NCBI RefSeq assembly: GCF_004364805.1
Contig: NZ_SOAP01000002.1
Location: 1,178,001-1,242,000, forward strand
Length of the DNA stretch: 64,000 bases
From: Pelagimonas phthalicica
Lineage (GTDB): Bacteria; Pseudomonadota; Alphaproteobacteria; Rhodobacterales; Rhodobacteraceae
Reading direction: 5' to 3'
Shown here one piece after another: positions 34,337 to 53,947 of this stretch. Both the position numbers and the translations under genes were made by a program. Under the pieces are notes generated by a model. The model saw only the letters and a list, made by a program, of their open reading frames with translations. It was not told the DNA's origin and did not search any database. Positions within the stretch are counted from its first letter, which is position 1. Each line of letters begins with the position of its first letter.

Positions 34337-34470
34337 TTTCGTGTCTTTGGACCGCACCCTGATCAGGGTGGGAGCGGCCATAAGGCTTCTTTGGTCGGCG
34401 GGGTTGAGAGTGAGATTTTGGCCCCGTGTTGCAGGGCGTTGCTGCGCCCTGTGACCTCCCCAATCGGGGA

Positions 34471-36235: not shown

Positions 36236-36287
36236 GCTGAAACCCTTCCCCGTCAATCGTAGCGATGCGTGATTCAAACATCGTCAT
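36207..36287 (-). CDS. 26-codon mini-ORF (MTMF...), coupled
   Basis: Starts at AAATGACGATG, 14 bases before the methylase (2) stop, reads MTMFESRIATIDGEG and onward, and ends within the next gene. The same start sequence opens the mini-ORF at 37011-37073 and the methylase at 34336. It may serve only as a reinitiation leader. Confidence 0.35.
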   Translation of the reverse strand: MTMFESRIATIDGEGFQHADTGNTVR

Positions 36288-37014: not shown

Positions 37015-37073
37015 GACATTTCACCCGAGCTGGCATCGTCAAAAGGGAAGTTGGCGGAATCGGCCATCGTCAT
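37011..37073 (-). CDS. 20-codon mini-ORF (MTMA...), coupled
   Basis: Reads MTMADSANFPFDDASSGEMS. Its start overlaps the stop of the DUF1353 gene and its stop overlaps the start of methylase (2), so ribosomes could pass straight through all three. The start context AAATGACGATG is repeated at two other junctions of this operon. Confidence 0.4.
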   Translation of the reverse strand: MTMADSANFPFDDASSGEMS

Positions 37074-37438
37074 TTCCGGCGTTTCCGGCCGACGGCCCAA
37101 ATGGCGAAAAGACGCAAGCGCATGGCCAAATAAGCCAGGCGTGCGCGCAGCTCCGGGGCTTGCTCACTCAGCGCCGCTTCAAACCACTGACTGTCCGCAA
37201 AGGCCCGGCGATACCCGCACTCAATAAGATAGTCGTGGATGCAGGCCGCTTTCAAAAAATAGGGATCATCCGGCGAAAACAGCCACCCCAATTGGCGCGG
37301 GACAGAGCTTTCAAATTCGCGGCCAGCGGGTACCAGTAGCTCCCACCCGCTATCCTTCTTTCCGATCTGCCAAGGCACGGGCTGCGCGGTCACATAACCA
37401 CGCGCGCCGCCCTTTTTGCACCATGACAGATCAGGCAT
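37070..37438 (-). CDS. DUF1353 family phage protein
   Basis: A 122-residue protein matching DUF1353: a WELLVPAGREFESSVPRQLG strand segment (the family GF.TDxASxPR), then AACIHDYLIECGYRR, which carries the conserved HDYLY-like motif, then a short helix with D and F. DUF1353 proteins occur in many tailed phages near fibre and lysis genes, with unknown function. The ATG ending at 37438 was preferred over a longer frame that overlaps the next gene. Confidence 0.75.
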   Translation of the reverse strand: MPDLSWCKKGGARGYVTAQPVPWQIGKKDSGWELLVPAGREFESSVPRQLGWLFSPDDPYFLKAACIHDYLIECGYRRAFADSQWFEAALSEQAPELRARLAYLAMRLRLFAIWAVGRKRRK

Positions 37439-37448
37439 TCTTGCCCCC

Positions 37449-37850
37449 TTAGAAACTGGCGGCGACTTGCGCCGCTTCGGCAGGGATTTCAGGCCAGGCG
37501 GCATCATCCAGAAAATCAGCCTCCGCATTCTCAATCAACGCCGCATTGGCCGCGCGCATGGCTTGAACCCAGCCAAGTGCGGCTGTGGCTCCGGCCAAGA
37601 TTGCAACTTCCGCATCGGTACGATTGGACGCGGTCTTGGCACCAATTACGCCCACGGCCAGCCCCATATTGGTTTGAGCCTCAGCCGACGCATGCGCGTA
37701 AATCCGGCGGCGACATTCCTCGCTGACCAAACGCTTACGCTCGGCTTTCAGAACCACGGCGATTTCATCTTCTGAAACGCCATTTGTACGCGCCGCCTCA
37801 ACAGTGGCGTTGCGCAAGATCGCGCCATTGGGCGTCTTAAAATCAAACAT
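37449..37850 (-). CDS. Phage tail-associated protein, unknown
   Basis: A 133-residue protein. The central part (RRRIYAHASAEAQTNMGLA) resembles tail-fibre assembly proteins with the ArRxRI.A pattern, and the C-terminal half is an alanine-rich helix. It sits between DUF1353 and a fibre-like gene, the usual place for a fibre chaperone. The assignment is tentative. Confidence 0.6.
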   Translation of the reverse strand: MFDFKTPNGAILRNATVEAARTNGVSEDEIAVVLKAERKRLVSEECRRRIYAHASAEAQTNMGLAVGVIGAKTASNRTDAEVAILAGATAALGWVQAMRAANAALIENAEADFLDDAAWPEIPAEAAQVAASF

Positions 37851-37864
37851 TGGTTTCTCCGGTT

Positions 37865-38569
37865 CTAGAGGGTGGTGTTTGCGGCCAGAAGACGACCAAC
37901 GGTTGCCGGGTCTGTGCCTGCCGCGTAGCCGTCAACCCACAGGCCAGCCATTTCAGCCGGGACGGTTACGGCGTTCAGCCAGAAGGCATAAAGCGCGTTG
38001 CCGCTCAAGAAGGCGTGGTTTGCGCCCGCTGGCACTTCCATTTCGCAATCAAACAGATCAACGAACATATTGGTGCGGCCATAGAACATACCGCGCGGCG
38101 TGACATGGGCTGAGACTTGCGTTGTGGCCAGGCGCAGGTCGCGGCACAGAATTGTGCAATTGCGCCCGGTCGAAGTGATAGTTGGCGCGCGGGTGTCAAT
38201 TGCGTCGATTTCCGGTGCCCAGGACAAGCGGCGCTTCACGCCAATTTCAGAGGATGCCAAGGTCAAGGACGCGGCGGGAATTGCGACATAGCTGTCAACC
38301 ACCAGGTCAGTCATGAGCGACACATAGTAATAGCCGCCGGGGATCATGAACTTTGCCGCCCCATCCAGAGACGGAACCGGGCTTTCTTCGGTCCCAAGAC
38401 CGTCAACATCATCACCAGTGGCCGCGTCCACAAACACCTTCCGGCCCATGGCCCCGCTCAAGCTGGAAAGGATGGCTTGCAAGCGCGCGTCAATCTGGGG
38501 GATTTTGCCTGCAATATCGCCATGCAGCGCGCTCAGCGCCGCCAGCATTTCTGTGATTTGGTTCGACAT
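37865..38569 (-). CDS. Tail fibre-like protein (beta-helix)
   Basis: A 234-residue protein. An N-terminal helical region (SNQITEMLAALSALHGDIAG) may form a trimeric stalk. It is followed by KVFVDAATGDDVDGLGTEES, the same beta-helix entry pattern seen in the 505-residue spike, and a series of short strands. It probably is a second receptor-binding or spike-anchor protein. Three bases separate it from the fibre gene upstream. Confidence 0.65.
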   Translation of the reverse strand: MSNQITEMLAALSALHGDIAGKIPQIDARLQAILSSLSGAMGRKVFVDAATGDDVDGLGTEESPVPSLDGAAKFMIPGGYYYVSLMTDLVVDSYVAIPAASLTLASSEIGVKRRLSWAPEIDAIDTRAPTITSTGRNCTILCRDLRLATTQVSAHVTPRGMFYGRTNMFVDLFDCEMEVPAGANHAFLSGNALYAFWLNAVTVPAEMAGLWVDGYAAGTDPATVGRLLAANTTL

Positions 38570-38571
38570 GT

Positions 38572-39117
38572 TTACGCTCCGGGATAGCGGCCATGTTCCT
38601 TGCGGAACCCTTCGGCCAGATGGAATTGTTGACGGGTGATTTTGGCTTGGTTTGCGATGATCAGCGCGAACTCATGATCAAAGATCACTTTCACATCCGG
38701 GCCGGTCGCAACCACATTGACGGAATTGTCGGGCAAGCCTGACAAGGCCAACGTGAACGCCACCACAACCTCCCCGGCTGCCGTCTTGAACATGAGCGGC
38801 GTGGTCTCATCCGACCAGATGGCCAGATGTGTGCCATCATCCAGAACAAAGCTGACTTCGCGCACCCAAAACTCCGGCGACGCTTGCAGGTGGCCTTGCA
38901 CCGTGATCGTCGCTGGCCCGGTGCGTTCGCCGCCGCCAACGGCAACCCGTAAGCGTTCATTGCGCAGCCCATCCGCCCCCTTTCCAGGCTCATAGCCAGC
39001 GCCGCCCCCGTCGCCAAAGGCCATATGGGTGATGTTGCCTTCCAGCCCCTGAGAACTTGCAGAGAGAATGGCGTTTAGCCCTGCATCCGTGATTACCGGT
39101 TGGATAAAATGTGACAT
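38572..39117 (-). CDS. Phage tail fibre N-terminal-type protein (P2 gpH-like)
   Basis: A 181-residue protein with the conserved start of P2-like fibre proteins: QPVITDAGLNAILSASSQGL, then ITHMAFGDGGGAGYEP and FWVREVSFVLDDGT. It is much shorter than P2 gpH (about 670), so the distal fibre is presumably supplied by the separate spike genes downstream. AGGA precedes the ATG ending at 39117. The frame is open upstream into the gpI C-terminal region. Confidence 0.8.
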   Translation of the reverse strand: MSHFIQPVITDAGLNAILSASSQGLEGNITHMAFGDGGGAGYEPGKGADGLRNERLRVAVGGGERTGPATITVQGHLQASPEFWVREVSFVLDDGTHLAIWSDETTPLMFKTAAGEVVVAFTLALSGLPDNSVNVVATGPDVKVIFDHEFALIIANQAKITRQQFHLAEGFRKEHGRYPGA

Positions 39118-39507
39118 GTGTCCTAACGCTGCCTTTGCCGTAATTCTGTGGATTTCGATCACCTGCACCGCCGAAGTGGCACCCAGCCCGGATTTGAACC
39201 CGGTGGGGCGTTTTGCGCCCCCTTTCGCGCGCGTGACGCCCAGCGTTGTCGCCGCTGTGACCAGGCGCAAAGGTGTTGCAAAGGCGGATGGCCGCTTGGC
39301 CTGACCACGTCCGCGCGCCACTTGCAGCGCTTGCGCCGCCGCTGTGACACCGATGCCGCCGGTTATATTCACGCCAACGCGGACGCTACTTTCCTGCGAC
39401 CAACGCTTGGTCACGTCGATCATGCGCCGCGCCGCACTCAAGGTGCGTGGGCCAAGCACCGCGTTTTCGTCAAACAGTGCCTCGCCCACCGGAAAAGGTG
39501 ATTTCAT
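39118..39507 (-). other. C-terminal part of the gpI gene, displaced by a frameshift
   Basis: Coding-like sequence (VGEALFDENAVLGPRTLSAA, RRMIDVTKRWSQESSVRVGV, then alanine-rich repeats) continues the gpI protein in another frame and stays open into the fibre gene. Removing one T from the TTTT run (minus strand) at about 39496 joins it to the N-terminal part. No stop separates it from the fibre ORF. Confidence 0.55.
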
Positions 39508-39871
39508 GGGTATTCGGCACGCCCATGGGCTGCATGTCATGCCACTGAGTGATGCGCATCTGCATGCCCAATAGGCGCAGCCCCAAACGCACACCGGCTG
39601 TGTATCCCTGCAAGGATTTGAGCCGCCAAATCTCACTCAGAATGCGGCGCTGAACATGTTCCGGGAAATTCGGATCAACGAATTCCTGCGCCGAAAACGC
39701 GCGGACCAGGTACGGCAAGGCACGGGCGTCAACGGTCATGGGGGCAACTAGGCTCAGCTTGGTCAAATCCAGCTCGGCCAACATCTCGCCAAAGGTCTGC
39801 ACCAGGGCGCGCTGGCGCTCATCATTGATACCAGGGGGGACCAGAGAAAGCGGGATCAGCGACTTAGACAT
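39470..39871 (-). CDS. Phage tail protein I (baseplate), N-terminal part
   Basis: The visible frame gives 133 residues that match P2 gpI: LIPLSLVPPGINDERQRALV, LPYLVRAFSAQEFVDPNFPE, and RRILSEIWRLKSLQGYTAGV. The frame closes early in a TTTT run, and the expected C-terminal half continues in another frame downstream. The start (ATG ending at 39871) overlaps the gpJ stop by eight bases. As read, the product would be truncated. Confidence 0.75.
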   Translation of the reverse strand: MSKSLIPLSLVPPGINDERQRALVQTFGEMLAELDLTKLSLVAPMTVDARALPYLVRAFSAQEFVDPNFPEHVQRRILSEIWRLKSLQGYTAGVRLGLRLLGMQMRITQWHDMQPMGVPNTHEITFSGGRGTV

Positions 39872-41003
39872 TGGGAGCCTCAACCACTGACACGTTGAAA
39901 TTCCCGATCACCGCGAAATGCGTCGATGGCAGATCTGTGAATTCGAAGTCAGGGCCATCCACTCCGACCACACCGGCCATGGCGCGCGCTGCTTCATTCA
40001 AAGCAGACGGGGAGACCTGAGACCCCAACACCTGCCCCCATTCGTCAAACTTCGCCCGCAAACGCTGCTCTTTTTCAGCCTCAACAGAGGCGAGATAACC
40101 AGGAGCCACGCGGATCGTCATGTTCACATCAAAGACCTGCGAAACCGCTTCATGAATGGTCACGTAATCCCCCATCGGGATCATGGTTTCCGGGTCCAGA
40201 TAGGCAAGGATCGCATCCGCAATCGCCTGTGGAGCTACCCCTGAATTCATGAGGGGATAAATGTGAATATGACCAGGCTGCGGGCGTGTCACTTCAACGT
40301 CAACAATGTCGGGATGCACGGCCTTGACCAGGACACGATAGGCCTGCCGTGAGCCGCCTCGCGTGACCAGCTCAAAGGCATTCAGAACCCGCGCGCGAAA
40401 CGCCCCGTCCCGTTCTCGCTCCGAGCCGCCAGCCGTGATCTGCGTATTCGACACGCTCTCAACATAGGCAATCGGGTCAAGCAAATCGTCAACTTGGCCG
40501 ATCTGCAAATCATTGAAGGCAACACCCGCACCGACCGCAGTTACGGCGACCGGCGCGGCGACTTCTCCAGCCGGAATGACCAATTCGGCATCCGTGCGAA
40601 ACACCAGCTCAGGGCCTGCCGAAACCCGCGTTCCTTTCGGAACAATCACCGCCTGGTGATGCGCCTCTGCCAGAGAAAACATGACTTCAGAACGCGCGAA
40701 TTGTGCCAGCAGGCGATAGGTGTCGACATTGGCCCAAATGCGGTCCAAGTGCTCACCTTGGGCAAAGATAGCTAGGTTCTGCAAAAGGCCGGTCTGGATC
40801 GCCTCACCAACATTCGCCAGCGAGTAGGTCATCAAATCAATGACAAAGCTTTCCGTTTGCGACGGATACATTTTGCGCCCGGAAATCGCCTCGAATTTGG
40901 CGATCAACTGCGCCTTGATCGCAATGGAATCACGCTGGCCAAAATTGGGAACCGGCAGGGCGCGCAGTTGCTCTAAGGTGAGAGTGGTCGGCATGAAGCT
41001 CAT
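39864..41003 (-). CDS. Phage baseplate protein J
   Basis: A 379-residue baseplate wedge protein. Family features: LEQLRALPVPNFGQRDSIAI near the start, the ESVSNTQITAGGSERERDGA segment (conserved GG..ES.e..R.R), and RQAYRVLVKAVHPDIVDVEV. The order W-J-I-H follows P2 exactly. It overlaps gpW by four bases and gpI by eight. Confidence 0.92.
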   Translation of the reverse strand: MSFMPTTLTLEQLRALPVPNFGQRDSIAIKAQLIAKFEAISGRKMYPSQTESFVIDLMTYSLANVGEAIQTGLLQNLAIFAQGEHLDRIWANVDTYRLLAQFARSEVMFSLAEAHHQAVIVPKGTRVSAGPELVFRTDAELVIPAGEVAAPVAVTAVGAGVAFNDLQIGQVDDLLDPIAYVESVSNTQITAGGSERERDGAFRARVLNAFELVTRGGSRQAYRVLVKAVHPDIVDVEVTRPQPGHIHIYPLMNSGVAPQAIADAILAYLDPETMIPMGDYVTIHEAVSQVFDVNMTIRVAPGYLASVEAEKEQRLRAKFDEWGQVLGSQVSPSALNEAARAMAGVVGVDGPDFEFTDLPSTHFAVIGNFNVSVVEAPNV

Positions 41004-41428
41004 GAGGCCAAACGCTCCTCACCCGCCACCAATGGCATGGTCAAAATTTGCTGATCATCCAGGACACCGGCAGCGGGTTGCCAATGAACCTCCGCCACCA
41101 AACGCGCATATTCGGCCTCATAAACCCGCACGACAGAAACCGTGACGCGCGGCTCCCACATGGCAATTGCATCCCAAATCGCCCGCTGAATTTGCGGGAT
41201 GGCAATATTCGGGTGACGGTCAATATAGGGCTGCAAATCGCACCCTTTGAGCGGCTCGGTTGGCACCGATCCGAGCGGGGTCAAAATAAGGTTTGTGATG
41301 CTTTGGGTCAGATCACCCAACCCAGCGACAATTTCTCCCCAAAACACTGGCCGCTCACCCGTTTGCGGATCAGCGCGCCCAACTTTGAGCGACCAGTGCT
41401 TAAAAGGAATGTCGTATTTGTCCTGCAT
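41000..41428 (-). CDS. Phage baseplate protein W (gp25-like)
   Basis: A 142-residue gp25/gpW-type baseplate protein. The family core DLTQSITNLILTPLGSVPTE and the helix region QIQRAIWDAIAMWEPRVTV are clear. The start is uncertain: the ATG ending at 41428 has no ribosome site. The gene lies just after a terminator that closes the membrane moron, so its expression may have been altered by that insertion. Confidence 0.85.
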   Translation of the reverse strand: MQDKYDIPFKHWSLKVGRADPQTGERPVFWGEIVAGLGDLTQSITNLILTPLGSVPTEPLKGCDLQPYIDRHPNIAIPQIQRAIWDAIAMWEPRVTVSVVRVYEAEYARLVAEVHWQPAAGVLDDQQILTMPLVAGEERLAS

Positions 41429-41457
41429 ACAAAGGTGATAGGCAGGCAGGCCCAACA

Positions 41458-41479
41458 AAAAAGGCGGACACATGTCCGC
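41458..41479 (-). terminator. Terminator of the membrane moron gene
   Basis: On the minus strand, arms GCGGAC and GTCCGC form a hairpin followed by CTTTTTTG. It lies between the moron stop (41621) and the gpW start (41428). Confidence 0.6.
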
Positions 41480-41620
41480 GCTAGATCGCTGAAAAATCAG
41501 CCGACGGCTAAGGGTTGGTTTGTTACAGGCGAAGATCCTAGTTGCAGCGTCACCAAGGGTTTCCACAAAAGAAACTTTGTTTACAGTTATTGGTATTCGA
41601 GACGGCGTGGCCCCATGTTT

Positions 41621-42130
41621 TTACACAAATAGGTCGCCAAATGCCCAAATGATTGTACCAACTGCTGCGACCTCAATTTGAGAAATCCCCAACGAGTGTG
41701 TGACTTCTCTGAGATCGGCAGTTAATTTAGGACCTTCAGTGACTGCGATGTACTCACTCGCTACAATGCTGAGTAAATGTCTCTGCGGCATATTAGGATT
41801 TTGGCGAGCCAAGCGATTAAGTCTGGTGCTCCAGTCTCCGTCTTTGCCTATGGAAGATTGCTTCTGCATGTTTTTGACATAAACCTCGGTGACTTCGAGA
41901 GCTTTCCCATAGTGAAGCCACAACCACAACAGGGCTAACGCAAGCAATGCAATCACCGCACCAGATCGGCTAAAATAGTCGTTTCCAAACACACATTCTG
42001 CCCAGTGGCCTAAAATTAGAACTTCAGCGCACAAGAAGTACAAAAACGGACGTTTTGACAAAGTGAGAATGAACCGACGAAATGGAAATTTCTGGTTCGA
42101 AAAAAGTGGCCGCCTCAATACACACCTCAT
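41621..42130 (-). CDS. Membrane protein, moron inserted in the tail operon
   Basis: A 169-residue protein with hydrophobic spans at about residues 28-45, 58-73 and 150-165, and a cytoplasm-type polar loop of about 75 residues between. The C-terminus (IEVAAVGTIIWAFGDLFV) is a membrane helix ending in a GD pair. The gene is more AT-rich than the tail genes, separates V from W, and has its own promoter and terminator. That is the profile of a lysogenic-conversion or superinfection-exclusion gene; the role is inferred. Confidence 0.7.
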   Translation of the reverse strand: MRCVLRRPLFSNQKFPFRRFILTLSKRPFLYFLCAEVLILGHWAECVFGNDYFSRSGAVIALLALALLWLWLHYGKALEVTEVYVKNMQKQSSIGKDGDWSTRLNRLARQNPNMPQRHLLSIVASEYIAVTEGPKLTADLREVTHSLGISQIEVAAVGTIIWAFGDLFV

Positions 42131-42141
42131 TTTTTTTCAAG

Positions 42142-42170
42142 ATTTTAGTTAATTGAAACAGCGGCGTAAA
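42142..42170 (-). promoter_or_regulatory. Promoter of the membrane moron
   Basis: On the minus strand TTTACG (-35) and TAAAAT (-10) are separated by exactly 17 bases, 12 bases before the moron start. The match to a sigma-70 promoter is good in this AT-rich gap. Confidence 0.5.
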
Positions 42171-42261
42171 CCGGTCAAAGCGAACTTGAACTGATTCTGC
42201 GCGAAAGCCTAGTTCCTAATGATGACCAACTACTATATGCAGAAATTCACACATTGCTCAC

Positions 42262-42798
42262 TCATGTCGGCTCACCAGTCAATGAGCTTCCTGACATGAC
42301 ATCTTCGTGCTTGTGATCATGACCGATATTGACGTCTTTGTTTGTCAGCACATCCGCATCAATTTTGACGGCATCCGCTTTCAGCGTGATTGTCTCAGCG
42401 TCCAAAACCAGCGCCCCGGACGTCTTGACCGAAACCGGCCCATTGGTCTCAACCGTCACTGCGCCGGTGGCCTTATTGACATGGACAGCCCCGCCGTCCC
42501 AAACCAGCCCAATATCGTCATTTGAGCCAAAAGGCGGTTTTCTCTGGTCATTGTATCGAGACCCGATCAAACACCCAGCCTCGCCCCTGGCGTCCAGGGC
42601 GCACCACACCTCATCACCCTTATTGGGCATCATGAATGTCGCGGTTTCTCCGCCCGATCTGGCCAGAACATCAATCCAATGAGAGACCACCTCGTCCTCA
42701 TCTTCGAATTGAACCCGCACCCGCTTTTTAACCGGGTCTCGCTGCACCACAATGCCGCGCTTATTTGTGTTATTGGCCTCATATTCACGCGCGCGCAT
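42262..42798 (-). CDS. Phage baseplate assembly protein V
   Basis: A 178-residue puncturing-device protein of the P2 gpV type. An N-terminal OB-fold domain (KRGIVVQRDPVKKRVRVQFE, then DEVWCALDARGEAGCLIGSR) is followed by a triple-stranded beta-helix of short repeats (TGAVTVETNGPVSVKTSGAL) and a histidine-rich C-terminal tip (NIGHDHKHEDV) that may bind iron. It overlaps gpD by 14 bases. Confidence 0.9.
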   Translation of the reverse strand: MRAREYEANNTNKRGIVVQRDPVKKRVRVQFEDEDEVVSHWIDVLARSGGETATFMMPNKGDEVWCALDARGEAGCLIGSRYNDQRKPPFGSNDDIGLVWDGGAVHVNKATGAVTVETNGPVSVKTSGALVLDAETITLKADAVKIDADVLTNKDVNIGHDHKHEDVMSGSSLTGEPT

Positions 42799-43777
42799 CG
42801 ACCAGCTCCAAAGAAACTTCATGACCGTCACGCGACAGAGTGTGGGTTGAGCTGTCAATCAGCCGCTTGCCGTCATAGCGCCCAAAGCCAGTCAGATTGA
42901 CCGTATTGCCCGCAACCGCCAGAGCGTTTCCGACCAGGTCACAAGAGCCGGAAAACTTGCCACGATTGGCGCGATGCAGCTCCGATTTCACCCGCGCTTC
43001 GGCTTGAGCCAGGCCCTCCAACCGCTCGCCGGAAATCTTGAGCACATCGCCGGTGGTGATATTCGGGTCTACCTCTTCATACCGGGTCAGCTTGCCCTTG
43101 TTTTGGTCAAGGTATTTTGCTTCGCCCTTGGAATAGGTGCCGGTACTTTCAAAGAAGAAATCATAGCTGATTACGTCAGCCTTCGCGATCTCAAGTGAGG
43201 CCTTTCGACCGTCAACAGATTTGAAACTGGTGAACACCACAAAGTCGCCACGCAGGTTGAAATAATGCCCGGTCTCATTAGCTAAGAGCTTTAGAAATTC
43301 CAGATCGCGCTCGCGGCGCTGAGTGATGCGCTCAAAAAACAAGTCGTTGATTTCACCCATGACGCCAAGACCAACCCGGCCCGCCACTTCATGAACCACA
43401 TCAGCCAGATTGATGCGCTCATAGGCTTTCGTCTTTTGCGTTCTTAGCGGCTTTGTCACCGGCGCGGCCAACCCGCTGATTGTCATCAAGTCGCCGTCAC
43501 GCCCACCCGAGGCATTGGGCTGGTCCAACTCAAACAAGCCACAGGGCAGTTTTCGCTGCTCAGCATCAAAGATCGTCAACTGCATTTTGCTGCCAATCTC
43601 TGGATACCAGCTAGACTTCCACCGCCCATCCTTGTCATGCACTGTGACCGTCATTTCTGACTCTTTGCCATGTAGATGATCGGTGTAGCTGACCTCTGTC
43701 ACCATAGAGCTGATATCGGCGGAAATGTCGGTGCCCTCATAGATCAGCTCAAAAAATGGGGCCGGAACGCCACTCAT
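42785..43777 (-). CDS. Phage late control D / tail hub protein
   Basis: A 330-residue protein of the gpD/VgrG-like family that forms the tail hub. Characteristic segments include YEGTDISADISSMVTEVSYT, then DPNITTGDVLKISGERLEGL and a closing HTLSRDGHEVSLELVDA. It overlaps X and V genes by four and 14 bases. Confidence 0.9.
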   Translation of the reverse strand: MSGVPAPFFELIYEGTDISADISSMVTEVSYTDHLHGKESEMTVTVHDKDGRWKSSWYPEIGSKMQLTIFDAEQRKLPCGLFELDQPNASGGRDGDLMTISGLAAPVTKPLRTQKTKAYERINLADVVHEVAGRVGLGVMGEINDLFFERITQRRERDLEFLKLLANETGHYFNLRGDFVVFTSFKSVDGRKASLEIAKADVISYDFFFESTGTYSKGEAKYLDQNKGKLTRYEEVDPNITTGDVLKISGERLEGLAQAEARVKSELHRANRGKFSGSCDLVGNALAVAGNTVNLTGFGRYDGKRLIDSSTHTLSRDGHEVSLELVDARA

Positions 43778-44801: not shown

Positions 44802-45614
44802 TTGGAGCCCGGAGACGAAAAGGAAGCGCATGAGCAGTTACAGATTGCGCGCTCGAACCTCGGGCCTCAGGCCGCGGCAGCCTGGGTTCATGTCGGCGAG
44901 TTTATCGCCGACAACGATCTGGATCTGTGGTCGGGGTTGACGGCCAAGACTTGTTTTCGCACAGCTCTGGATCTGCTCCCGCCGGGCGTGCACGATCCAT
45001 TTCGTGCTGATGCCTTGCTTGGCTATGGTGCCGCCCTGACTGAGGAGGGCAGCGGCTACCGCGACCCGGTGCTGGAAGAAGCCATCACCTGCCTGTCGGA
45101 GGCGATACTGCTGTTTGCGGCAATCCCCGACCGCGAGGCGGAACTGGAAGCTCGCTATTTCCGGGCCTATGCCAACTCCGAATTGGTGGGAATCTCCCGA
45201 TTTGCCGCCGGCGAGAATGCGATTGTTGAACTGGAGGACTTGCGTGGTTTGGTGAATCCGCGCGCTAACCCAGTCTTGTTTGCCAACATTCATTCCCTGC
45301 TTGGCAATGCTTATCTTGATCGAGCCGAGGGCGATCCAAGGGAAAACCACACGCAGGCAAAAACCGCCTTTCGTGCGGCATTGAAGGTGCACCGACGTAT
45401 GGGCAGTAAGGTTGGATGCGCACAGGGAAATCTCGATTTAGCTGTGACGTTCAATCGCTTGCGCACTTTGGGGGATCCGAAAGCCAGCCGCAACGCGATC
45501 TATTGCGCCAGAAAGGCCACGGCTTTCGTCGATACCGATATCCATCTGGAGCTGAAGACCACGATCCTCGTCACCTACGCCAAAGCTCTACAGAACCGGG
45601 GAGGTCGACGATGA
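44802..45614 (+). CDS. TPR-repeat protein of the CHAT module
   Basis: A 270-residue all-helical protein with TPR-like pairs, for example FRADALLGYGAALTEEG, EEAITCLSEAILLFAAI, then NIHSLLGNAYLDRAEG and KTAFRAALKVHRRMG. The start is a TTG after GAGGAG. It ends immediately before the CHAT gene and continues the helical repeat style of that protein's N-terminus, so it may be the sensor half of a split TPR-CHAT protease. Confidence 0.65.
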   Translation: MEPGDEKEAHEQLQIARSNLGPQAAAAWVHVGEFIADNDLDLWSGLTAKTCFRTALDLLPPGVHDPFRADALLGYGAALTEEGSGYRDPVLEEAITCLSEAILLFAAIPDREAELEARYFRAYANSELVGISRFAAGENAIVELEDLRGLVNPRANPVLFANIHSLLGNAYLDRAEGDPRENHTQAKTAFRAALKVHRRMGSKVGCAQGNLDLAVTFNRLRTLGDPKASRNAIYCARKATAFVDTDIHLELKTTILVTYAKALQNRGGRR

Positions 45615-47186
45615 GTGTCAAATTACACCAAGGCCGAAGCTCTGCTGGACAAAAGTATTGCACTGGCAGTTACAGCTGGCAACTTGCCAGTCGAGCAGGC
45701 GTTGCGATTGGCAAGAGCGCAACTGGTATTGGATCTGTGCCAATACGCAGACCACAATCGCTCGGTCGATGTGGAAGCCGATTTGGAGGCTAGTCAAAGC
45801 AACCTTGATCCTTTGGAAACGCTCACCTGGTGGCTGCGGTGGCAGGAGCTTTCCGGCCTGCTCGGGGCGGTAACAGGTGATACTCAGCGTATGATCAGTA
45901 CTGCCGAATCCTCGCTGAAACATGTCACAAATGTTCTGGAACAGGCTGAATCTTTCGCAGAGAAAGCTGAGTATTTGTCCCGTTTGAGCTTCATTGCGGA
46001 CCTGGGGATTCTGGGATACCTGAGCGAGGCTGGCCCGCCTGCGGGACTGCGTTTTGCCCGACGTGTCTTTGCCCGCCTCATTGGCAGTGAAACTGCGGTT
46101 TTCCAAACCCCGGAAGGGGTGGCAGAACTATACCTGCTAAATCCCGTGACCCCGGACTGGTGCGGGGTCTTGGTTTCGGCCGGCGAGTCTTGCACGTTCT
46201 ATGAACTTGAGAGCGTTGGCAAGGATTTTTGGAACGAAGCCATCGACGAATTGCGCCCCGGGTTCTTCTCCGGCATGTCGGCTCTGCGCCAACCCGGCGG
46301 CACGGGCCAATTTGCTGATTTGCTGGAAGAATGGGTTCTTGCAGCTTCAGGTGCGCTTGGGCCTGTGCTCACCGACCTTCATGATGCAGACTACAAAGAA
46401 ATCGTCGTCTTTGCTTTTGGCGGTTGGTGCACCGTTCCAGTGTCTGCCTTGCAACTCCCTGGTCCGCAAGGGTCTGCTTTGATCGAACAGGCGGCGATTG
46501 CGCATGGCCCTGATCAGTTCGTCGCACACGAACCGCGACTGGACAGGGTTTTGCACGTTGTAGATGCGCGACTAACCGAGGCCAAAGCAGAAACCAAAAT
46601 GCTCCAATCTTTCGCCAAGGAAGTCGTGACCTGTACCGTTCGCCGTGATGTTCAGGCTGTGCTCGGAGAAGGTCAGGCCTTTGACTGTATCCATTTTACA
46701 ACCCATGGCGAGCACGATTTTGACCACCTTGAGGGTGTGGGCATTCGGTGCGCGGACGACGAGTTGCTTACGGCTCGCTGGTTTTTTGAAAACGCCAAAC
46801 TGAAAGGTGGCCCACTGGTCTGTCTGGCGGCATGTCAAACCGGATTGTCTGACTTCGCAAACCTCCCGCACGAAACCTTCGGATTGCCTATGGCTTTCCT
46901 CGCGGCTGGAGCGAGCGCCGTTATAGGCACGCAATGGCCTGTAGATGATGTGGCCACGCGCTTGCTTATCACCCGGTTCTATCTAGAACTGAAATCCGGT
47001 TGTTCTACCGCCGAGTCATTGCGACGAGCCCAGCTATGGCTGCGTAACGCCGATGACGCCTCGCTGGAGGATGCGAGCACCGGCGCCATGCGTTTTTCAT
47101 CGTTCGATGGCAATTGGCAGAACCCGGACCTGCCTCCGTTCAGCCACGCCTATTTCTGGGCCGGGTTTGTTTTGCATCGGGCGTGA
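45615..47186 (+). CDS. CHAT-domain caspase-like protease with helical N-terminus
   Basis: A 523-residue protein. Residues 1-150 are TPR-like helices. The C-terminal CHAT peptidase has its catalytic histidine at H364 (IHFTTHGEHD) and cysteine at C407 (CLAACQTGLSD), with GTQWPVDD and the closing SHAYFWAGFVLHR typical of the family. The best ribosome site (GGGGAGG) points to an ATG at 45611 in another frame; an extra A in the AAA run just after it would explain this. As read, translation would use the GTG at 45615. Related proteases act in programmed cell death and CRISPR-linked defence. Confidence 0.8.
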   Translation: MSNYTKAEALLDKSIALAVTAGNLPVEQALRLARAQLVLDLCQYADHNRSVDVEADLEASQSNLDPLETLTWWLRWQELSGLLGAVTGDTQRMISTAESSLKHVTNVLEQAESFAEKAEYLSRLSFIADLGILGYLSEAGPPAGLRFARRVFARLIGSETAVFQTPEGVAELYLLNPVTPDWCGVLVSAGESCTFYELESVGKDFWNEAIDELRPGFFSGMSALRQPGGTGQFADLLEEWVLAASGALGPVLTDLHDADYKEIVVFAFGGWCTVPVSALQLPGPQGSALIEQAAIAHGPDQFVAHEPRLDRVLHVVDARLTEAKAETKMLQSFAKEVVTCTVRRDVQAVLGEGQAFDCIHFTTHGEHDFDHLEGVGIRCADDELLTARWFFENAKLKGGPLVCLAACQTGLSDFANLPHETFGLPMAFLAAGASAVIGTQWPVDDVATRLLITRFYLELKSGCSTAESLRRAQLWLRNADDASLEDASTGAMRFSSFDGNWQNPDLPPFSHAYFWAGFVLHRA

Positions 47187-48203: not shown

Positions 48204-48771
48204 TTAACTACACAAACGACGCATTGCCGTCCCCGGACGGAAACACGTCAAAGTACCAATCACCCGAGAGATGGACGACCTCTGGCCTTGTGTCCAGAAA
48301 CTCCAGCCAAATTGGTTCCGCTTTCGGGACTCGAATCTCGTCTCACGATGTCTCTCAAAACCAGCCGTTCTGGCGCTCCGCAGAGACTGGCGGTTGAGAC
48401 CCAGTTTGCATCGGCGTCAGCTTGCAACGAATGTCTATTTTTGCTCACTTCTCAATAATCGATGAACACCAACTGAGCGAGACAAAGAATCTTAAGCCAC
48501 TGTTATAAGGCCATTTTGTCATGGGCCAGCCCTACTTTTGGGAGAGAGGGTGAGGCCATCAGAAGCCATGGATTGTCTGAACCCGCCTTGACCAAGAAGC
48601 CGCAGTCCGCCCTAAATCTAAGGAAAATGGCGCTTGTAATCAGGTCCATGTGCCCAACTAAGCGACTGCGAGTCGCCGGAAAGAAGGATCCGCCCCGCCG
48701 CAATAGTATGAGTTGTGGACCTTGGGGTTCATTGATGGAACAATCGTTAGTAGCTTTTTAGGGAGGGGAAA
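48204..48771. other. 568-base segment without a convincing gene
   Basis: Short overlapping frames exist on both strands but none has a ribosome site and consistent composition. It separates the CHAT module from the helicase gene and probably holds the promoter of the latter. Confidence 0.5.
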
Positions 48772-51700
48772 TTGAAGATTGCGATATTCTCGACGCTTTG
48801 GGGGTCATCCACCGGTGGGATCGATGTCTGCTCCAAAGAACTGGTGCATTCTTTAGCACAATCCGGAGATCACGAAGTGTGCGCGTTCTACAAAGTTCGC
48901 ACACAGCAGCTTGTGAGTGACGGCGAGAAGTACGGGTTTACGGTTATAACGCCAGACGACAGAGTGGTTGATGACGTTGACGCGAGCCAATTGGGACATT
49001 GGACTAGAATAGAGGCACGCGCCGCCATACCTCAGCTCTTGAGCAAGCGGTTCAAGCCTGACTTGGTGATCGTAAATGATATATTTGGGCGCGAACTTAT
49101 TCCGGTGCTTCGAGAGTACTTCTCTGAAGCAAAGATCGCGACACTCTTTCACAGTGCGTATGGTCGAAGTGAGGCCCGCAAAGGCGTTCTTGATACCGAT
49201 ATTGAGCGTAAAGAAAACTATCAAAGAGAACTTATCGAACAATCTGACTTGATCTTCTCAGTCGGTTCTTTTTCTGTTGAGTACCTCAAATACCTTTCGC
49301 CAAAATCCGCAGAGAAAATCAACTTTCTTTATCCGGGCCTGCCGAACATCAAAAGCCGAGCCACAAAATCGACGCGCTTCAGCGCAGCATCCTTCGGCAG
49401 GCTAGATCGGAAAAGTGATACAATTAAGCAAATCAGCATCTCCGCAGAGGCTTGGGCTTCCGCTCGCTCCAGCGGGCACATCTCAGAACTGGCAACAGAC
49501 GACGTAACTTTCACTGCTATTGGTTCACGTGGAGCAGAGCCAGTTCTAGATGATGTTAAGTCAAAATTGGAAGGCACTTGGAAGGCGAACTTGCGTGAAC
49601 TGCCATTTGAAGAGATTAGCGACTTTGACCAATCCCGACTAAAGGATACCCTAGATCGGTGCGCGTTTGTTCTTTTGAACTCGTGGTATGAAAACTTTGG
49701 CCTTACATTTCTTGAAACCTGCACATTTGGCGTGCCTACCGTGGTATCGCGGAGTTCCGGATTTTTTGTTGATGCAATTGAATTGCTTGGAGAAGAGGCC
49801 AAGGACTACATTTTGAGCGTCGACACTGATGGAGCATCCAGGAGCGAACTAATCGCAGAATTGGAAAAGACTTTAATCGCTGCTTCCGCCAACTACGAGC
49901 GTACGTTTGCAAATGCCCAAAGACTGAGCGACTTGCTCCGAGAAAAGTGGCCGAACTGGTCCGACGCAGTCAAATCCATCGTCGACGCGGTCGAGAGTTC
50001 ACCCACCGTTTCCAGTTCGGGAAGTGTCAGCCATGAAGAGAATGATACGATTGAAATCGCGCACAGTTATCCTTGGCGGGAAACCTTGGAAGACCTCATG
50101 GATTGGACTTGGTCGAAAAATGTTCTTCACTACAGCAACTTGAAAGGGCTTCCTCAGTTCCGGCAGAACTCAGGCTTTTTTCTCACACCGCTGCAAAAAA
50201 AATTCTGGGACGAGCGCCAGAGCTTGCTGCAAAGTGGTTTCAAAGACGTTGTCCTGTCTGGAGGAACTTCGTCCGGAAAGACAACCCTGGCAGAAACGCT
50301 ATTTGGACTGGCTAGACCAAATGAGTTTGCACGCACCCGCGTATTGTACGTGGCGCCAACAAAGGCTCTAGCGCAAGAAAAGGCGAGGAGCTGGCGGAAA
50401 AAGTACCCTTCGGCCTCTCTAGGCAGAGATAGTTTCGATCCAGTGATCGTCTCCACTGGAGATGACAACGCCTCCGACGGAGCGTTAATCCGTGGAGAAT
50501 TTAACATTGCGTGCACTGTTTATGAAAAAGCAAATGTCATACTTAGCGCCAGCCAAGAATTGTTCGAGAAGATTAATTTGGTGATCATCGATGAATTCCA
50601 TATGATAGAGGATTTACATCGTGGGTCGATACTGGAAGCTCTGCTCGCGAAGATAAAACGCGAGAAAGAAAGACGGTTAGAAAGCGTCGACGAAGGCAAC
50701 CACCTGCGCTTAGTGGTTATTACGACGGAAGGAGCTAGTTCGAAGCTCAGAGATTACCTTTCGTACACAGACTATGAAACGCTAGATACAGTCTACCCGC
50801 TCGTGATTTCTGATACTAGTCGCGCGATGCGCGTGGAACATTCAGCATTCTTTCCGGGACGAACCGACGCACAGTCATTACCGTTGTTCGCAGTCAAGTC
50901 TTTTGAAACGGATGAACAATTGTCGTTGACGCAAGAAGCTGCCGACGATTTGTCCGGTCAACACGCGATTTTCCAGAAAGGCGTTGTAAGGATAGGCGAA
51001 GCCGCAAAAATCGATAGACGACAGCAGAGGTGGGATCAATATCATGACTTCATAGATCATTGGTATGCGCAAAACCCAACCGGTCGGCGGCTGCTTATAT
51101 TCATGAACTCAAAGTATGAAGTCGTGGAGGTCGCAAAGTTCTTGAAGAATAAGATCTCGAAGAAGACCTTTCAGACGCTCGACAGCGGAGTTCTGGCGCT
51201 TTCGCCCAACGAAGACGGCCTCGCCGAGGTGGCACTTTCGCTAGATGAAGTTGAGGAGACGGAATTTGTTAAGGACTTGCGAAGGTGTTTGATCGAGGGC
51301 GTCTTTATTCACGACGCAGACGTACCACAATCTGTTAGAGAGTCGTTTGAAACCTACCTTGGAAAAGCGCTAGATGAGACAAGCCGGTCGGAGATCATAG
51401 TTGCGACAGAAACACTAAGCTACGGTGTTAATCTTCGGGTATCCGATGTTGCACTGTTTAATGTTCTGTTTCCTGAGGGAGAGAGAATTCAAACACGCAG
51501 ACCAAAGCCTATTTTGCTCTCGAGATGCGACTTTGTGAATATGTCAGGTAGGGCGGGACGTCTTGGACAGGCAACTCGGGACGGGTCTGCACGGGTCTAT
51601 TGGTATCTTGATCCAGAAGACGAAAAGTCATTTGAGGCTGTTCTCGAGCAGTTTTACGTACGACAGCCATCAATAAGTAGCCAACTTTTTCACCGCGCTG

Positions 51701-53643
51701 ACACGAGGATTGCACTGGACTATCAAAAGATGGCAAAGTCTTTGGTTCCTACGGCAAGTTCAACACAAAGCGAGACTGGAGCGGAGTCTTCTTCCAATGC
51801 AGTGGAACGGTTCAGCTATCCCTTTGTGCGTACGGTACTTGACGGCTTAAGATTTTTAGGAGGTTCAGAAAGCGAAACCGGGTTTCTTGAGAAAGTGGGT
51901 TGTACAGATGATGAACTGAACCAAGAGTTTCTGAGCAAAACCTTTTACTACCGGGAAAAATGTGAGCCGCACGAGGGAGAAAGCAGCGATAGTTCGCAGC
52001 AGGTACTAATACAACGTGCAACGCATCTGGCTACGTCCGCACGTCAAATTCTGCAGAGCGCAAAATCTGACCGATATGGTTTAGTGCGCGAACCAAGAAC
52101 AGGTGGCTACCAGATAACGGCTTTGGGAAGTTCAACGATCGACACCGGAACAGAGATTGCGACGGTTAGTCAGCTAAGACGGGCAGTCATTGAGCTTAGA
52201 GATTTTTGGGCAGGGAGGTTTGAGCGTTCTTTGCCTTTCGAACTGGCGGTTTTTCCCGTGTTCTTTCAACCCGAAGTTCACCGACAGTATCTGTTGCGGC
52301 TACCCGAGTTCAGCCACGCGATGGACTGGAACCCGGTCGAAAACCGAAATGATCTATTGATTAGGACCTCTGAAGCGCTCAGTGCCATGGGAGCGATAAG
52401 CGAAGAAGATGCTAATCGACTAGTACACGTCTCCAATGCTTTCCTAGAATGGACTGTTGCGAACCAACCAATTGTAAGTGAACAAGGTAGGTATGAGGAG
52501 GCTGCGCATGACGCTTGCTTGAGGCTCTATCTTGCCTTTCTGCACTGGATATCTGGGGCCTCCTTGGGCGAAGTGATTGGTGAAGTGCAGCGACTTTACG
52601 GAACAGCCCCCACAAAAACTGAGTCATCTGTGTTCAATTTTGAGGCATTCGCAGACAACCTAACGTGGAAGATTCTGTTTCTGATTTCACTTATCCGCAC
52701 TTCAGGGGAATTAATTCTACCACCTAGCTCAACCTTCGATGCGGTCCGGTTTGTGCATCGGGCAAGATTTGGATGCTCGGAAAAAGCAATCCCGTTGCTC
52801 TTCAAAAACAAGAGGGAGCGTCCTCCCTTAAATAGAGTTGCAGCACACAGCTTACTCTCCGGCCAGAATACCACGGCATCTATAGCGCTAGGCAGCTTAG
52901 ATGAAAGCTCTGGACTGAACCAAAAACAGATATTAGCTACCACCCGACAGGTGCGCGAGTTTATCGACGAGAGTTTTCAAGAAATATCGCGGCAGTTCAA
53001 CTACCTAGCTTCAGGAAGCGGCCTGAATCGAATTAACGAGGAAACGGCAAAGAGTTACTGGGACTACTCGAGAGCTCAGATCACGGCCCTCCTCAGCACG
53101 AGCATAGCAGAAGATAGCGTTAGTCTCGAAGTTTTCCCGACAAAAGAGACACAGGAAACGGAGATACCAACTGGAAGTGACGGGGAACCTCGTGTTGTTT
53201 TCAGAGAGACATTTTCCGGCATTGGAATAGACGTCTTCAACCAAACACTAGATCCTTCGAACAAAGAGCGTGTAATTACTTCAAGAACGGCGTCAGTCGA
53301 CGCCCACTTCGTCTTTGACGAAAATGCTTCATTGGAGGCTGAAGACCCTGGTGGGGCCCATCGACTTTTTGTCGATTTTCCGTGGACGACGGGCTCTGTC
53401 GGCCACGCAGCCGGAGGCTGCCGTCTTTCGCCGGCTGCGTTCGGCATCGTACTGAGTCTCTGCGCACGCAACTTCGTTGTTGATGTCTCAGGATACCTGC
53501 AGGCAATCTTACGAACTGACAAAAAGGTTCCGATCGGAGTTCGAGAACTGTTTGGCATTTCGGAACCTCATCTTCGAAAGAACACTTTCCCGGAGGCCAT
53601 TTTTGAGGCGTGGGCCAAGTACATTGAGGTTGGCGAGTTCTAA
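48772..53643 (+). CDS. Glycosyltransferase (GT4-like)-Ski2-type helicase fusion
   Basis: A 1,623-residue protein starting at a TTG with GGGAGGGG upstream. Residues 1-400 form a GT-B glycosyltransferase: glycine-rich donor loop TLWGSSTGGIDV (8-19) and the GT4 EX7E motif E307-x7-E315 within WYENFGLTFLE. Residues 465-940 form an SF2 helicase: Walker A GGTSSGKTT (497-505), PTKA, DEFH (607-610), TTEG (651-654), motif V ATETLSYGVNLR (878-889) and motif VI NMSGRAGRLGQ (923-933), a Ski2-like set. About 680 residues of unknown helical sequence follow. The gene is clearly AT-richer than the host. Candidate stand-alone defence protein. Confidence 0.85.
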   Translation: MKIAIFSTLWGSSTGGIDVCSKELVHSLAQSGDHEVCAFYKVRTQQLVSDGEKYGFTVITPDDRVVDDVDASQLGHWTRIEARAAIPQLLSKRFKPDLVIVNDIFGRELIPVLREYFSEAKIATLFHSAYGRSEARKGVLDTDIERKENYQRELIEQSDLIFSVGSFSVEYLKYLSPKSAEKINFLYPGLPNIKSRATKSTRFSAASFGRLDRKSDTIKQISISAEAWASARSSGHISELATDDVTFTAIGSRGAEPVLDDVKSKLEGTWKANLRELPFEEISDFDQSRLKDTLDRCAFVLLNSWYENFGLTFLETCTFGVPTVVSRSSGFFVDAIELLGEEAKDYILSVDTDGASRSELIAELEKTLIAASANYERTFANAQRLSDLLREKWPNWSDAVKSIVDAVESSPTVSSSGSVSHEENDTIEIAHSYPWRETLEDLMDWTWSKNVLHYSNLKGLPQFRQNSGFFLTPLQKKFWDERQSLLQSGFKDVVLSGGTSSGKTTLAETLFGLARPNEFARTRVLYVAPTKALAQEKARSWRKKYPSASLGRDSFDPVIVSTGDDNASDGALIRGEFNIACTVYEKANVILSASQELFEKINLVIIDEFHMIEDLHRGSILEALLAKIKREKERRLESVDEGNHLRLVVITTEGASSKLRDYLSYTDYETLDTVYPLVISDTSRAMRVEHSAFFPGRTDAQSLPLFAVKSFETDEQLSLTQEAADDLSGQHAIFQKGVVRIGEAAKIDRRQQRWDQYHDFIDHWYAQNPTGRRLLIFMNSKYEVVEVAKFLKNKISKKTFQTLDSGVLALSPNEDGLAEVALSLDEVEETEFVKDLRRCLIEGVFIHDADVPQSVRESFETYLGKALDETSRSEIIVATETLSYGVNLRVSDVALFNVLFPEGERIQTRRPKPILLSRCDFVNMSGRAGRLGQATRDGSARVYWYLDPEDEKSFEAVLEQFYVRQPSISSQLFHRADTRIALDYQKMAKSLVPTASSTQSETGAESSSNAVERFSYPFVRTVLDGLRFLGGSESETGFLEKVGCTDDELNQEFLSKTFYYREKCEPHEGESSDSSQQVLIQRATHLATSARQILQSAKSDRYGLVREPRTGGYQITALGSSTIDTGTEIATVSQLRRAVIELRDFWAGRFERSLPFELAVFPVFFQPEVHRQYLLRLPEFSHAMDWNPVENRNDLLIRTSEALSAMGAISEEDANRLVHVSNAFLEWTVANQPIVSEQGRYEEAAHDACLRLYLAFLHWISGASLGEVIGEVQRLYGTAPTKTESSVFNFEAFADNLTWKILFLISLIRTSGELILPPSSTFDAVRFVHRARFGCSEKAIPLLFKNKRERPPLNRVAAHSLLSGQNTTASIALGSLDESSGLNQKQILATTRQVREFIDESFQEISRQFNYLASGSGLNRINEETAKSYWDYSRAQITALLSTSIAEDSVSLEVFPTKETQETEIPTGSDGEPRVVFRETFSGIGIDVFNQTLDPSNKERVITSRTASVDAHFVFDENASLEAEDPGGAHRLFVDFPWTTGSVGHAAGGCRLSPAAFGIVLSLCARNFVVDVSGYLQAILRTDKKVPIGVRELFGISEPHLRKNTFPEAIFEAWAKYIEVGEF

Positions 53644-53933: not shown

Positions 53934-53947
53934 GCCCCCGGGCACCA
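53934..53947 (+). repeat. Right attachment repeat (attR)
   Basis: Exact copy of GCCCCCGGGCACCA from the 3' end of tRNA-Phe at 32734-32747. Flanking bases differ immediately on both sides. The remaining gap to 54198 shows no gene. Confidence 0.75.

What the first reader, a model, noticed from the sequence alone, without database searches (positions are those of the whole stretch)
48772..53643. Glycosyltransferase fused to a Ski2-like helicase in one 1,623-residue protein
Seen directly: a GT-B domain with a GT4 EX7E motif (E307, E315), then a full SF2 helicase set (Walker A, DEFH, SGRAGR) and about 680 unassigned residues, in one frame with no internal stop. Helicases of this class appear in bacterial defence (for example Hachiman's HamB), but I know of no named system with a glycosyltransferase N-terminus. 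It could glycosylate a nucleic acid, a nucleotide or a host factor when the helicase senses foreign DNA or RNA. It sits on an integrated element next to other candidate defence genes.
Basis: partly seen in the sequence, partly recalled or inferred. Interest (0 to 1): 0.88.

Follow-up and report, generated by a model that had tools for sequence, protein, structure and literature searches.

The report
Glycosyltransferase-helicase defence candidate protein
A single large bacterial protein joins a sugar-transferring enzyme to a DNA-helicase sensor of the kind used in phage defence, and relatives carry a protease, a kinase or a nuclease-like part instead of the sugar enzyme, so it looks like a one-gene immune system that would act by attaching sugars.

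Summary
A Thalassomonas ortholog with the same order (49% identity) rules out an assembly artefact. There it sits in a 6.1-kb insert that holds no other clear gene; in three of three congeners the flanking genes are adjacent. Of the "680 unassigned residues", about 961-1375 is shared with a kinase-helicase (strong) and, less surely, with caspase-helicases; the last 250 or so are known only in the two GT4 proteins. In a 31-row helicase tree the gene falls in a group (96/91) that carries its effector-like domain in the same chain: caspase (8), GT4 (2), APH/TCAD9-like kinase (1), C-terminal PD-(D/E)xK-like motif (3, by eye). HamB and M23B, whose partner is a separate gene, form the other group. 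So this is a Hachiman-like sensor helicase with a fused GT4 effector, not Hachiman: no HamA match, no room for the HamA-binding domain. GT4 as a conflict effector was predicted in print (PMC8195603); I found no helicase fusion described. Defence, catalysis and target are untested; the helicase structure model failed.

The parts
48760..48768 (+). AGGGAGGGG, likely ribosome-binding site before the TTG start at 48772
   Evidence: read
48772..53643 (+). whole gene, 1,623 aa, TTG start, single frame
   Evidence: full-length ortholog in L013
48772..50001 (+). GT4-conflict glycosyltransferase domain, residues 1-410 (EX7E: E307 at 49690-49692, E315 at 49714-49716)
   Evidence: PF20706 E=4.9e-38; G15, G16, H127, R210, E307, E315 invariant in the 6 GT4-conflict domains aligned; 46.8% identity to L013
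50002..50166 (+). linker, residues 411-465, poorly conserved (23.6%); too short for a HamA-binding NAH domain
   Evidence: NAH described in PMC12278908 (passages)
50167..50841 (+). RecA1, residues about 466-690 (Walker A 497-504, DEFH 607-610)
   Evidence: DEAD PF00270 1.1e-16; 64.0% identity to L013; domain limits are mine
51082..51651 (+). RecA2, residues about 771-960 (GRAGR 926-930)
   Evidence: Helicase_C under cut-off; PADLOC HamB and M23B matches reach this part; 61.9% identity to L013; domain limits are mine
51652..52896 (+). C-terminal helicase region, residues about 961-1375, perhaps winged helix, ratchet and helix-hairpin-helix of Ski2/Hel308 type
   Evidence: GT4 pair against kinase-helicase L037: probability 97.7; against caspase-helicases: moderate; domain names from knowledge of Hel308, not from a model
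52897..53640 (+). extra C-terminal domain, residues about 1376-1623, unknown; homology shown only between the two GT4 proteins (37.9%)
   Evidence: no Pfam match over cut-off; no detectable match to the end of L037
32673..32747 (+). tRNA-Phe, probable attachment site (left end of the element)
   Evidence: left-side similarity to G002 and G004 runs up to the tRNA and stops there
53934..53947 (+). 14-bp exact copy of the tRNA-Phe 3' end, candidate right attachment site, 290 bp after the gene
45615..47186 (+). CHAT-domain (caspase-like) protease gene on the same stretch, about 1.6 kb upstream; no evidence that it works with this gene
   Evidence: PF12770 1.9e-36

Best explanation
A one-gene, horizontally moving immune protein. 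The Ski2/Hel308-type helicase with its C-terminal region surveys nucleic acid, most likely DNA, as HamB does in Hachiman. On meeting damaged or foreign DNA, ATP-driven rearrangement (or oligomerisation) frees or activates the fused N-terminal GT4 domain. GT4 then transfers a sugar from a nucleotide-sugar to a common intracellular acceptor (a protein, or a small molecule whose loss stops growth), so that the infected cell arrests before the phage multiplies. Shown: domain order, catalytic motifs present in both enzymes, conservation in a second distant genome, a lone-gene insert there, and other effector-like domains (kinase, caspase, nuclease-like) on relatives of the same helicase. Inferred: sensing of DNA, activation, glycosyl transfer, toxicity and target.
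For: GT4-conflict match nearly full length with EX7E present. Ortholog with the same order at 49%, in an insert between genes that are adjacent (127, 158 and 476 bp apart) in 3 of 3 congeners (adjacency read from the BLAST coordinates); no other ORF of 60 aa or more lies in the insert clear of this gene and of the left flank. Insert 40.8% G+C against 50-52% in its flanks; window gene about 49% against 54-60% for the genes around it. Tree of 31 helicases: fused-effector group 96/91, GT4 plus kinase 100/99, HamB/M23B on another branch 97/93. Effector-like domains: caspase in 7 of 10 plasmid helicases opened and in L183, all 8 with DCCFSG and with SGHG or AGHG; APH-like kinase with HGDLHAGN and IDFSD in L037. 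HamB is a DNA-damage-sensing helicase that controls a nuclease effector (PMC12278908: passages; start of abstract in a listing). GT4 domains stand in effector position in other conflict systems (PMC8195603, section 15 read). 5 of 8 caspase-helicase plasmid loci lie within 6-8 kb of genes annotated for defence or conflict functions (TIR and caspase twice, ABC-three-component, Piwi, XamI with methylase); in the other 3 I saw no gene annotated as defence.
Against: No activity shown by any means. The GT4 fusion is rare: two members found, so neighbours cannot be tabulated. The helicase and its C-terminal region gave no usable model (pLDDT 29.5). The C-terminal link to caspase-helicases is weak without helicase motif VI, so the kinship rests on the helicase core. 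The placement outside HamB/M23B is marginal by the AU test (p=0.046). Among the 8 neighbouring ORFs scanned against PADLOC, one matched (BovA model, the CHAT gene). Whether DNA or RNA is sensed is not decided by sequence.
Confidence: 0.55

Rival explanations
1. GT4 modifies the foreign nucleic acid itself: the helicase feeds in phage DNA or RNA and GT4 adds sugar to bases, blocking replication or marking it.
For: The helicase would bring substrate to the GT in cis; phage T4 base glucosyltransferases also have a GT-B fold (recalled, no call).
Against: Characterised GT4 enzymes act on glycoproteins, lipids, sugars and metabolites (PMC8195603); base glucosylation in T4 needs hydroxymethylated bases (recalled), and no other clear gene travels with the Thalassomonas copy. 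Kinase and caspase on relatives of the core do not suggest nucleic acid substrates.
Confidence: 0.12
2. GT4 makes or destroys a small nucleotide or sugar signal (as MshA-like GT4 enzymes make small glycosides), or drains nucleotide-sugars.
For: MshA and BshA, GT4 enzymes with small acceptors, are among the first fold matches (low TM-scores).
Against: A dedicated signal needs a receptor, and no other clear gene lies in the Thalassomonas insert; a drain of nucleotide-sugars remains possible.
Confidence: 0.18
3. It is a Hachiman variant that needs a HamA-like nuclease in trans; GT4 only tunes it.
For: The best PADLOC matches are M23B and HamB1 models; HamA fusions to proteases occur, with a dead HamA in virtually all (PMC12799240, section 5 read); the AU test rejects a place with HamB/M23B only marginally (p=0.046).
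Against: No HamA model matches the 8 neighbouring ORFs tested; the linker is too short for NAH; best tree puts the helicase outside the HamB/M23B group. The rest of the host genome was not searched for HamA.
Confidence: 0.06
4. Housekeeping or element-maintenance role (DNA repair, transfer or envelope glycosylation), not defence.
For: Hel308 is a repair helicase (recalled); the nearest NCBIfam models are Hel308-like, though far under their cut-offs.
Against: Patchy presence, lone-gene insert, foreign G+C, conflict-type GT4 and differing effector-like domains on relatives.
Confidence: 0.09

Closest known systems
Hachiman (HamAB) and PADLOC candidate PDC-M23
   Same: Ski2-like SF2 sensor helicase paired with an effector; best PADLOC matches of this helicase
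   Different: The HamA or M23A partner is a separate upstream gene and HamB has an NAH domain that binds HamA (PMC12278908); here a GT4 is fused, no HamA match nearby, no room for NAH, and the best tree separates them
Caspase-helicase fusions on plasmids (Rhodopseudomonas, Bosea, Rhizobium, Agrobacterium, Hymenobacter, Fibrella, Manganitrophus, Bradyrhizobium)
   Same: N-terminal effector-like enzyme fused to a helicase of the same group; C-terminal region moderately similar
   Different: Caspase in place of GT4; about 1,000 aa; no counterpart of residues 1376-1623 aligned. No PADLOC model specific to this fusion appeared among the rows shown, and the paper searches listed none that I recognised
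GT4-conflict (PF20706) effectors fused to STAND NTPases, AP-GTPases and others
   Same: Same GT4 family in a large conflict-type protein; GT4 is N-terminal in L063 and L048 as well
   Different: Sensor there is a STAND or GTPase module, or TPRs; here an SF2 helicase, which the passages seen in PMC8195603 do not connect with GT4 (its Figure 6B is not held)
Hel308/HELQ
   Same: Among the nearest solved and named helicases
   Different: No GT4; repair function (recalled)

Membership tests
Hachiman (HamAB) | HamA (DUF1837) nuclease gene beside the helicase | tested here: not met
   8 neighbouring ORFs of the window, no HamA model at E 0.01; no other clear gene in the Thalassomonas insert
Hachiman (HamAB) | N-terminal NAH domain that binds HamA | tested here: not met
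   only about 55 residues between GT4 and RecA1; NAH from PMC12278908 (passages)
Hachiman (HamAB) | Ski2-like SF2 helicase with intact motifs | tested here: met
Hachiman (HamAB) | helicase groups with HamB | tested here: inconclusive
   best tree puts it in the fused-effector group, 96/91; joining it with HamB/M23B is rejected only marginally, p-AU 0.046
Hachiman (HamAB) | activation by DNA damage | not testable with these tools
   needs biochemistry
GT4-conflict glycosyltransferases (PF20706) | full-length profile match over cut-off | tested here: met
   131.6 bits, profile 3-384 of 385; the cut-off itself is unspecific
GT4-conflict glycosyltransferases (PF20706) | GT4 catalytic signature (EX7E, G-rich loop, His, Arg) | tested here: met
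   invariant over the 6 members aligned; roles of the residues recalled
GT4-conflict glycosyltransferases (PF20706) | GT-B fold | tested here: inconclusive
   GT-B enzymes are the top fold matches but TM is low and the C-terminal lobe is unreliable
GT4-conflict glycosyltransferases (PF20706) | glycosyl transfer activity | not testable with these tools
   no assay
Fused-effector helicase group (caspase-helicase type) | helicase core groups with caspase-helicases apart from HamB/M23B | tested here: met
   96/91 in 31 rows, 98/92 in 28 rows
Fused-effector helicase group (caspase-helicase type) | shared C-terminal region after the helicase core | tested here: inconclusive
   strong with the kinase-helicase (probability 97.7); with caspase-helicases probability 97 including motif VI, 58-59 without it, 2 for the GT4 pair alone

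The most novel reading that the evidence does not exclude
A new kind of single-protein immunity in which a nucleic-acid-sensing helicase directly fires a glycosyltransferase, within a previously unnamed family of one-gene systems whose helicase is constant and whose effector (caspase, GT4, kinase, nuclease) is swapped. Glycosylation would then be an effector chemistry of bacterial immunity.
Probability: 0.45. Interest if true: 0.87.

Novelty: new variant of a known kind. Interest (0 to 1): 0.7.

Why it matters
GT4 domains have been predicted as immune effectors in bacteria and some animals, by modification of invader molecules or of contact surfaces, without a target named (PMC8195603, section 15 read). 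A one-gene system with a sensor of understandable logic (Hachiman-like helicase) would give a compact way to find what such a glycosyltransferase modifies. The occurrence of caspase, kinase, nuclease-like and GT4 domains on one helicase stock also predicts a shared trigger, so the caspase version, with a readable protease output, could be used to find the trigger for all.

Tried and rejected
Pseudo-nuclease idea: the last 243 residues resemble by eye the end of the C-terminal PD-(D/E)xK-like region of L173 (Smith-Waterman 56, reached by 0 of 500 shuffles), but of the six pairings tested only window-L173 and L013-L173 (41; 17 of 500) stand out; with the homolog L182 the scores are 28-31 (174 to 393 of 500), L037-L173 gives 32 (152 of 500), and hhalign gives E 0.012-0.59; not supported. 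Homology of the extreme C-terminus with the kinase version L037: not detected (probability 0.3); the C-terminal query 956-1623 found G149 only through its partial locus L028 (E=1e-7, up to about residue 1362), not through the full-length row. Viral carriage: 48 and 76 pattern stretches in viral contigs, none confirmed; phage records match only RecA1 (6 of 50,697 records, all Betalipothrixvirus). DNA-level relatives on plasmids: none. Helicase structure model: useless. PDB profile search with the C-terminal region: nothing convincing (best E 0.21). Empty site in the host's own relatives: not shown; similarity on the left ends at tRNA-Phe in G002 and G004, and the right flank lies elsewhere in G003.

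Rows dropped before counts: of the 13 records and 21, ten helicase loci and three GT4 loci were opened; the rest were not examined; L183 and L182 came from 35 records. E. coli L092 (annotated DUF1837 nearby, 506-aa helicase) was not scanned at its N-terminus and was left out of the trees; of the 9 loci only L173 entered the second tree; five 'out' rows were named outgroup by weak similarity alone. The tree labels 'HamA-like' for L045 and L087 were my guess from an upstream gene; PADLOC matched neither, and the upstream gene of L090 was not scanned. G1211 has the same contig and nearly the same match as G149 and is counted once. The stretches called PD-(D/E)xK-like in L173, L182 and L069 are read by eye. 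Gene names ilvC and proA in L013 are my recognition, from no family call.

Full report
1. The observation. window:48772-53643 (+) encodes 1,623 residues in one frame without a stop. The start is TTG with AGGGAGGGG at 48760-48768. Pfam gives GT4-conflict PF20706 over residues 6-402 (131.6 bits) and DEAD over 475-633 (61.4 bits); Helicase_C is under its cut-off. PF20706 has a lax cut-off: it rings in 14 of 14 control genomes, and 6 other matches in the Thalassomonas genome score 21-35 bits, against 167.5 bits for the ortholog. The nearly full-length score, not the family name, is the evidence. Six GT4-conflict domains aligned share the glycine loop (G15, G16), H127, R210, E307 and E315.

2. An ortholog confirms the fusion. 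A scan of 84,980 genomes by exact peptide patterns, which finds close relatives only, returned one relative among 19 pattern stretches: Thalassomonas sp. RHCl1 (Gammaproteobacteria), 1,639 residues, same order, 49% identity. Identity by part: GT4 46.8%, linker 23.6%, RecA1 64.0%, RecA2 61.9%, 961-1375 52.3%, the end 37.9%. In 3 of 3 congeners the two flanking genes (ilvC and proA by my recognition) lie 127, 158 and 476 bp apart; in RHCl1 they lie 6,126 bp apart. The insert holds this gene, an antisense frame that overlaps its start, and short frames, none of 60 aa or more clear of the gene and of the flanks; its G+C is 40.8% against 50-52%. So the protein probably travels as a one-gene module, and any partner would be a common host component. 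That the congeners lack the gene elsewhere was not tested.

3. Spread. With the whole protein or the two-row alignment, the full-length fusion was found only in the window's genome among 101 relatives and 398 genomes of the phylum, and only in RHCl1 among 369 genomes of its class. With a helicase profile, which does not look for GT4, near full-length matches came only from the window's genome among 385 of the class and from RHCl1 and G149 (there G1211) among 398. These sets overlap. No plasmid record of 72,556 covers 80% of the protein; no viral contig was confirmed.

4. Effector-like domains differ. G149 has a 1,748-residue protein with the helicase and the following region (24% identity over both; GT4 pair 975-1375 against it: hhalign probability 97.7, E=1.6e-12), but its N-terminus is of APH kinase type (32.6 bits, cut-off 23.2) and resembles TCAD9 (37.7 bits, just under cut-off 40), with HGDLHAGN and IDFSD. 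That TCAD domains belong to the ternary conflict systems of PMC7159879 is recalled; of that paper I saw passages only. Of ten plasmid helicases opened, seven have an N-terminal caspase domain; Ensifer L087 and Streptomyces L090 have no Pfam match there, and E. coli L092, annotated with DUF1837 nearby, was not scanned. An eighth caspase case is Bradyrhizobium L183. All eight show DCCFSG and SGHG or AGHG. Three more helicases (L173, L182, L069) have a PD-(D/E)xK-like motif at the C-terminus, by eye.

5. Tree. With 31 helicase cores the fused-effector members (caspase 8, GT4 2, kinase 1, C-terminal nuclease-like 3) form one side of a branch, 96/91; GT4 plus kinase 100/99; the 11 HamB/M23B-type rows form another, 97/93. 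The first tree, 28 rows, gave 98/92 for the former. The outgroup was chosen by weak similarity. Upstream partners of nine genome helicases: M23A in 5 (one weak), HamA1 in 3, none matched in 1; the tenth gene tested, beside L087, matched nothing. Joining GT4 and kinase with HamB/M23B costs 8.8 log units, p-AU 0.046, a marginal rejection. L045 and L090 have long branches.

6. The C-terminal part. Against seven caspase-helicases the region gives probability 97, E=1e-10, but that alignment begins in helicase motif VI. Started after it, the three-row profile gives probability 58-59, E=9e-5, the GT4 pair alone 2, E=0.02, and a reversed control 0.2, E=0.32. So the link to the caspase-helicases in this part is moderate and runs through the kinase version. 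Hel308-type models are the nearest named helicases; winged helix, ratchet and helix-hairpin-helix are my assignment from knowledge, not from a model. The model of 431-1623 failed (pLDDT 29.5). The last 250 residues or so are unassigned and not detectably shared with L037; a dead-nuclease origin was tested and not supported.

7. Setting. The gene is about 49% G+C among genes of 54-60%; the gaps beside it are 51-53%. tRNA-Phe ends at 32747; its last 14 bases recur exactly at 53934-53947, 290 bp after the gene. The interval carries phage tail and baseplate genes and D12 methyltransferase matches and a CHAT protease. Similarity to G002 and G004 on the left runs up to the tRNA and stops there. No integrase was identified, but not every ORF was scanned. 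Of eight caspase-helicase plasmid loci, five lie near genes annotated for defence or conflict functions; three do not clearly. No statistic of enrichment was made.

8. Mechanism. In Hachiman, HamB senses DNA damage and liberates the HamA nuclease (PMC12278908: passages; starts of the abstracts of paper and preprint in a listing); in fusion Hachiman a protease is fused to a HamA that is dead in virtually all cases, and activates a nuclease (PMC12799240: section 5 read and passages). GT4 domains occupy effector positions in STAND and AP-GTPase systems (PMC8195603: section 15 read). By the same logic the helicase here is sensor and switch and GT4 the output. What sugar, to what acceptor, is unknown; a host protein or a vital metabolite is my preference because the gene seems to move alone and its sister outputs, kinase and caspase, commonly act on proteins (recalled).

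9. Known or new. It fails two defining features of Hachiman (HamA nearby, NAH) and is not filed there; it may work like it. In PADLOC the best matches of this protein, and of the caspase-helicases (7), the first C-terminal nuclease-like one and the kinase one also tested, are HamB or M23B models, with a general caspase model for the caspase part (most lists cut at 25 rows). Paper searches for these combinations listed no paper that I recognised as describing them; several lists were cut, and figures and supplements were not seen, so Figure 6B of PMC8195603 may show a helicase fusion. I rate it a new variant of a known kind.

Noticed in passing
L017, L084, L085, L086, L088, L089, L091, L183: N-terminal caspase plus Hel308-like helicase proteins on plasmids, near genes annotated for defence or conflict functions in 5 of 8 loci; no named system found.
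   Followed up: partly
L037:6509-11755 (-): APH/TCAD9-like kinase fused to the same helicase and following region as the window protein.
   Followed up: partly
L173:5932-8835, L182:6001-8889, L069:4518-7223: Helicases of the same group with a C-terminal PD-(D/E)xK-like motif (by eye) and no N-terminal effector seen.
   Followed up: partly
L015:8980-12921: GT4-conflict domain fused to a B12-binding and radical SAM module on a Rhizobium conjugative plasmid.
   Followed up: no
L063:2-3130 (-): GT4-conflict followed by nSTAND-like, TCAD7-like and TPR-like matches, these three under their cut-offs; the frame runs off the contig.
   Followed up: no
L016:8992-10896: GT4-conflict protein of 634 aa next to genes annotated as type VI secretion on a Robbsia plasmid.
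   Followed up: no
L014:8992-11394: Hymenobacter GT4-conflict gene split into two open frames and not annotated in the PLSDB table.
   Followed up: no
window 44802-47186: Unknown 270-aa gene followed directly by a CHAT-domain protease on the same stretch: a possible separate defence pair.
   Followed up: partly
window 33500-43777: Phage-like tail and baseplate genes and two D12-class DNA methyltransferase matches: remnant of a prophage or phage-like element.
   Followed up: partly
L175:5357-7978 (-): Another helicase that matches the A8 profile (E=1.6e-28) in the window's own genome (contig C7), 873 aa.
   Followed up: no
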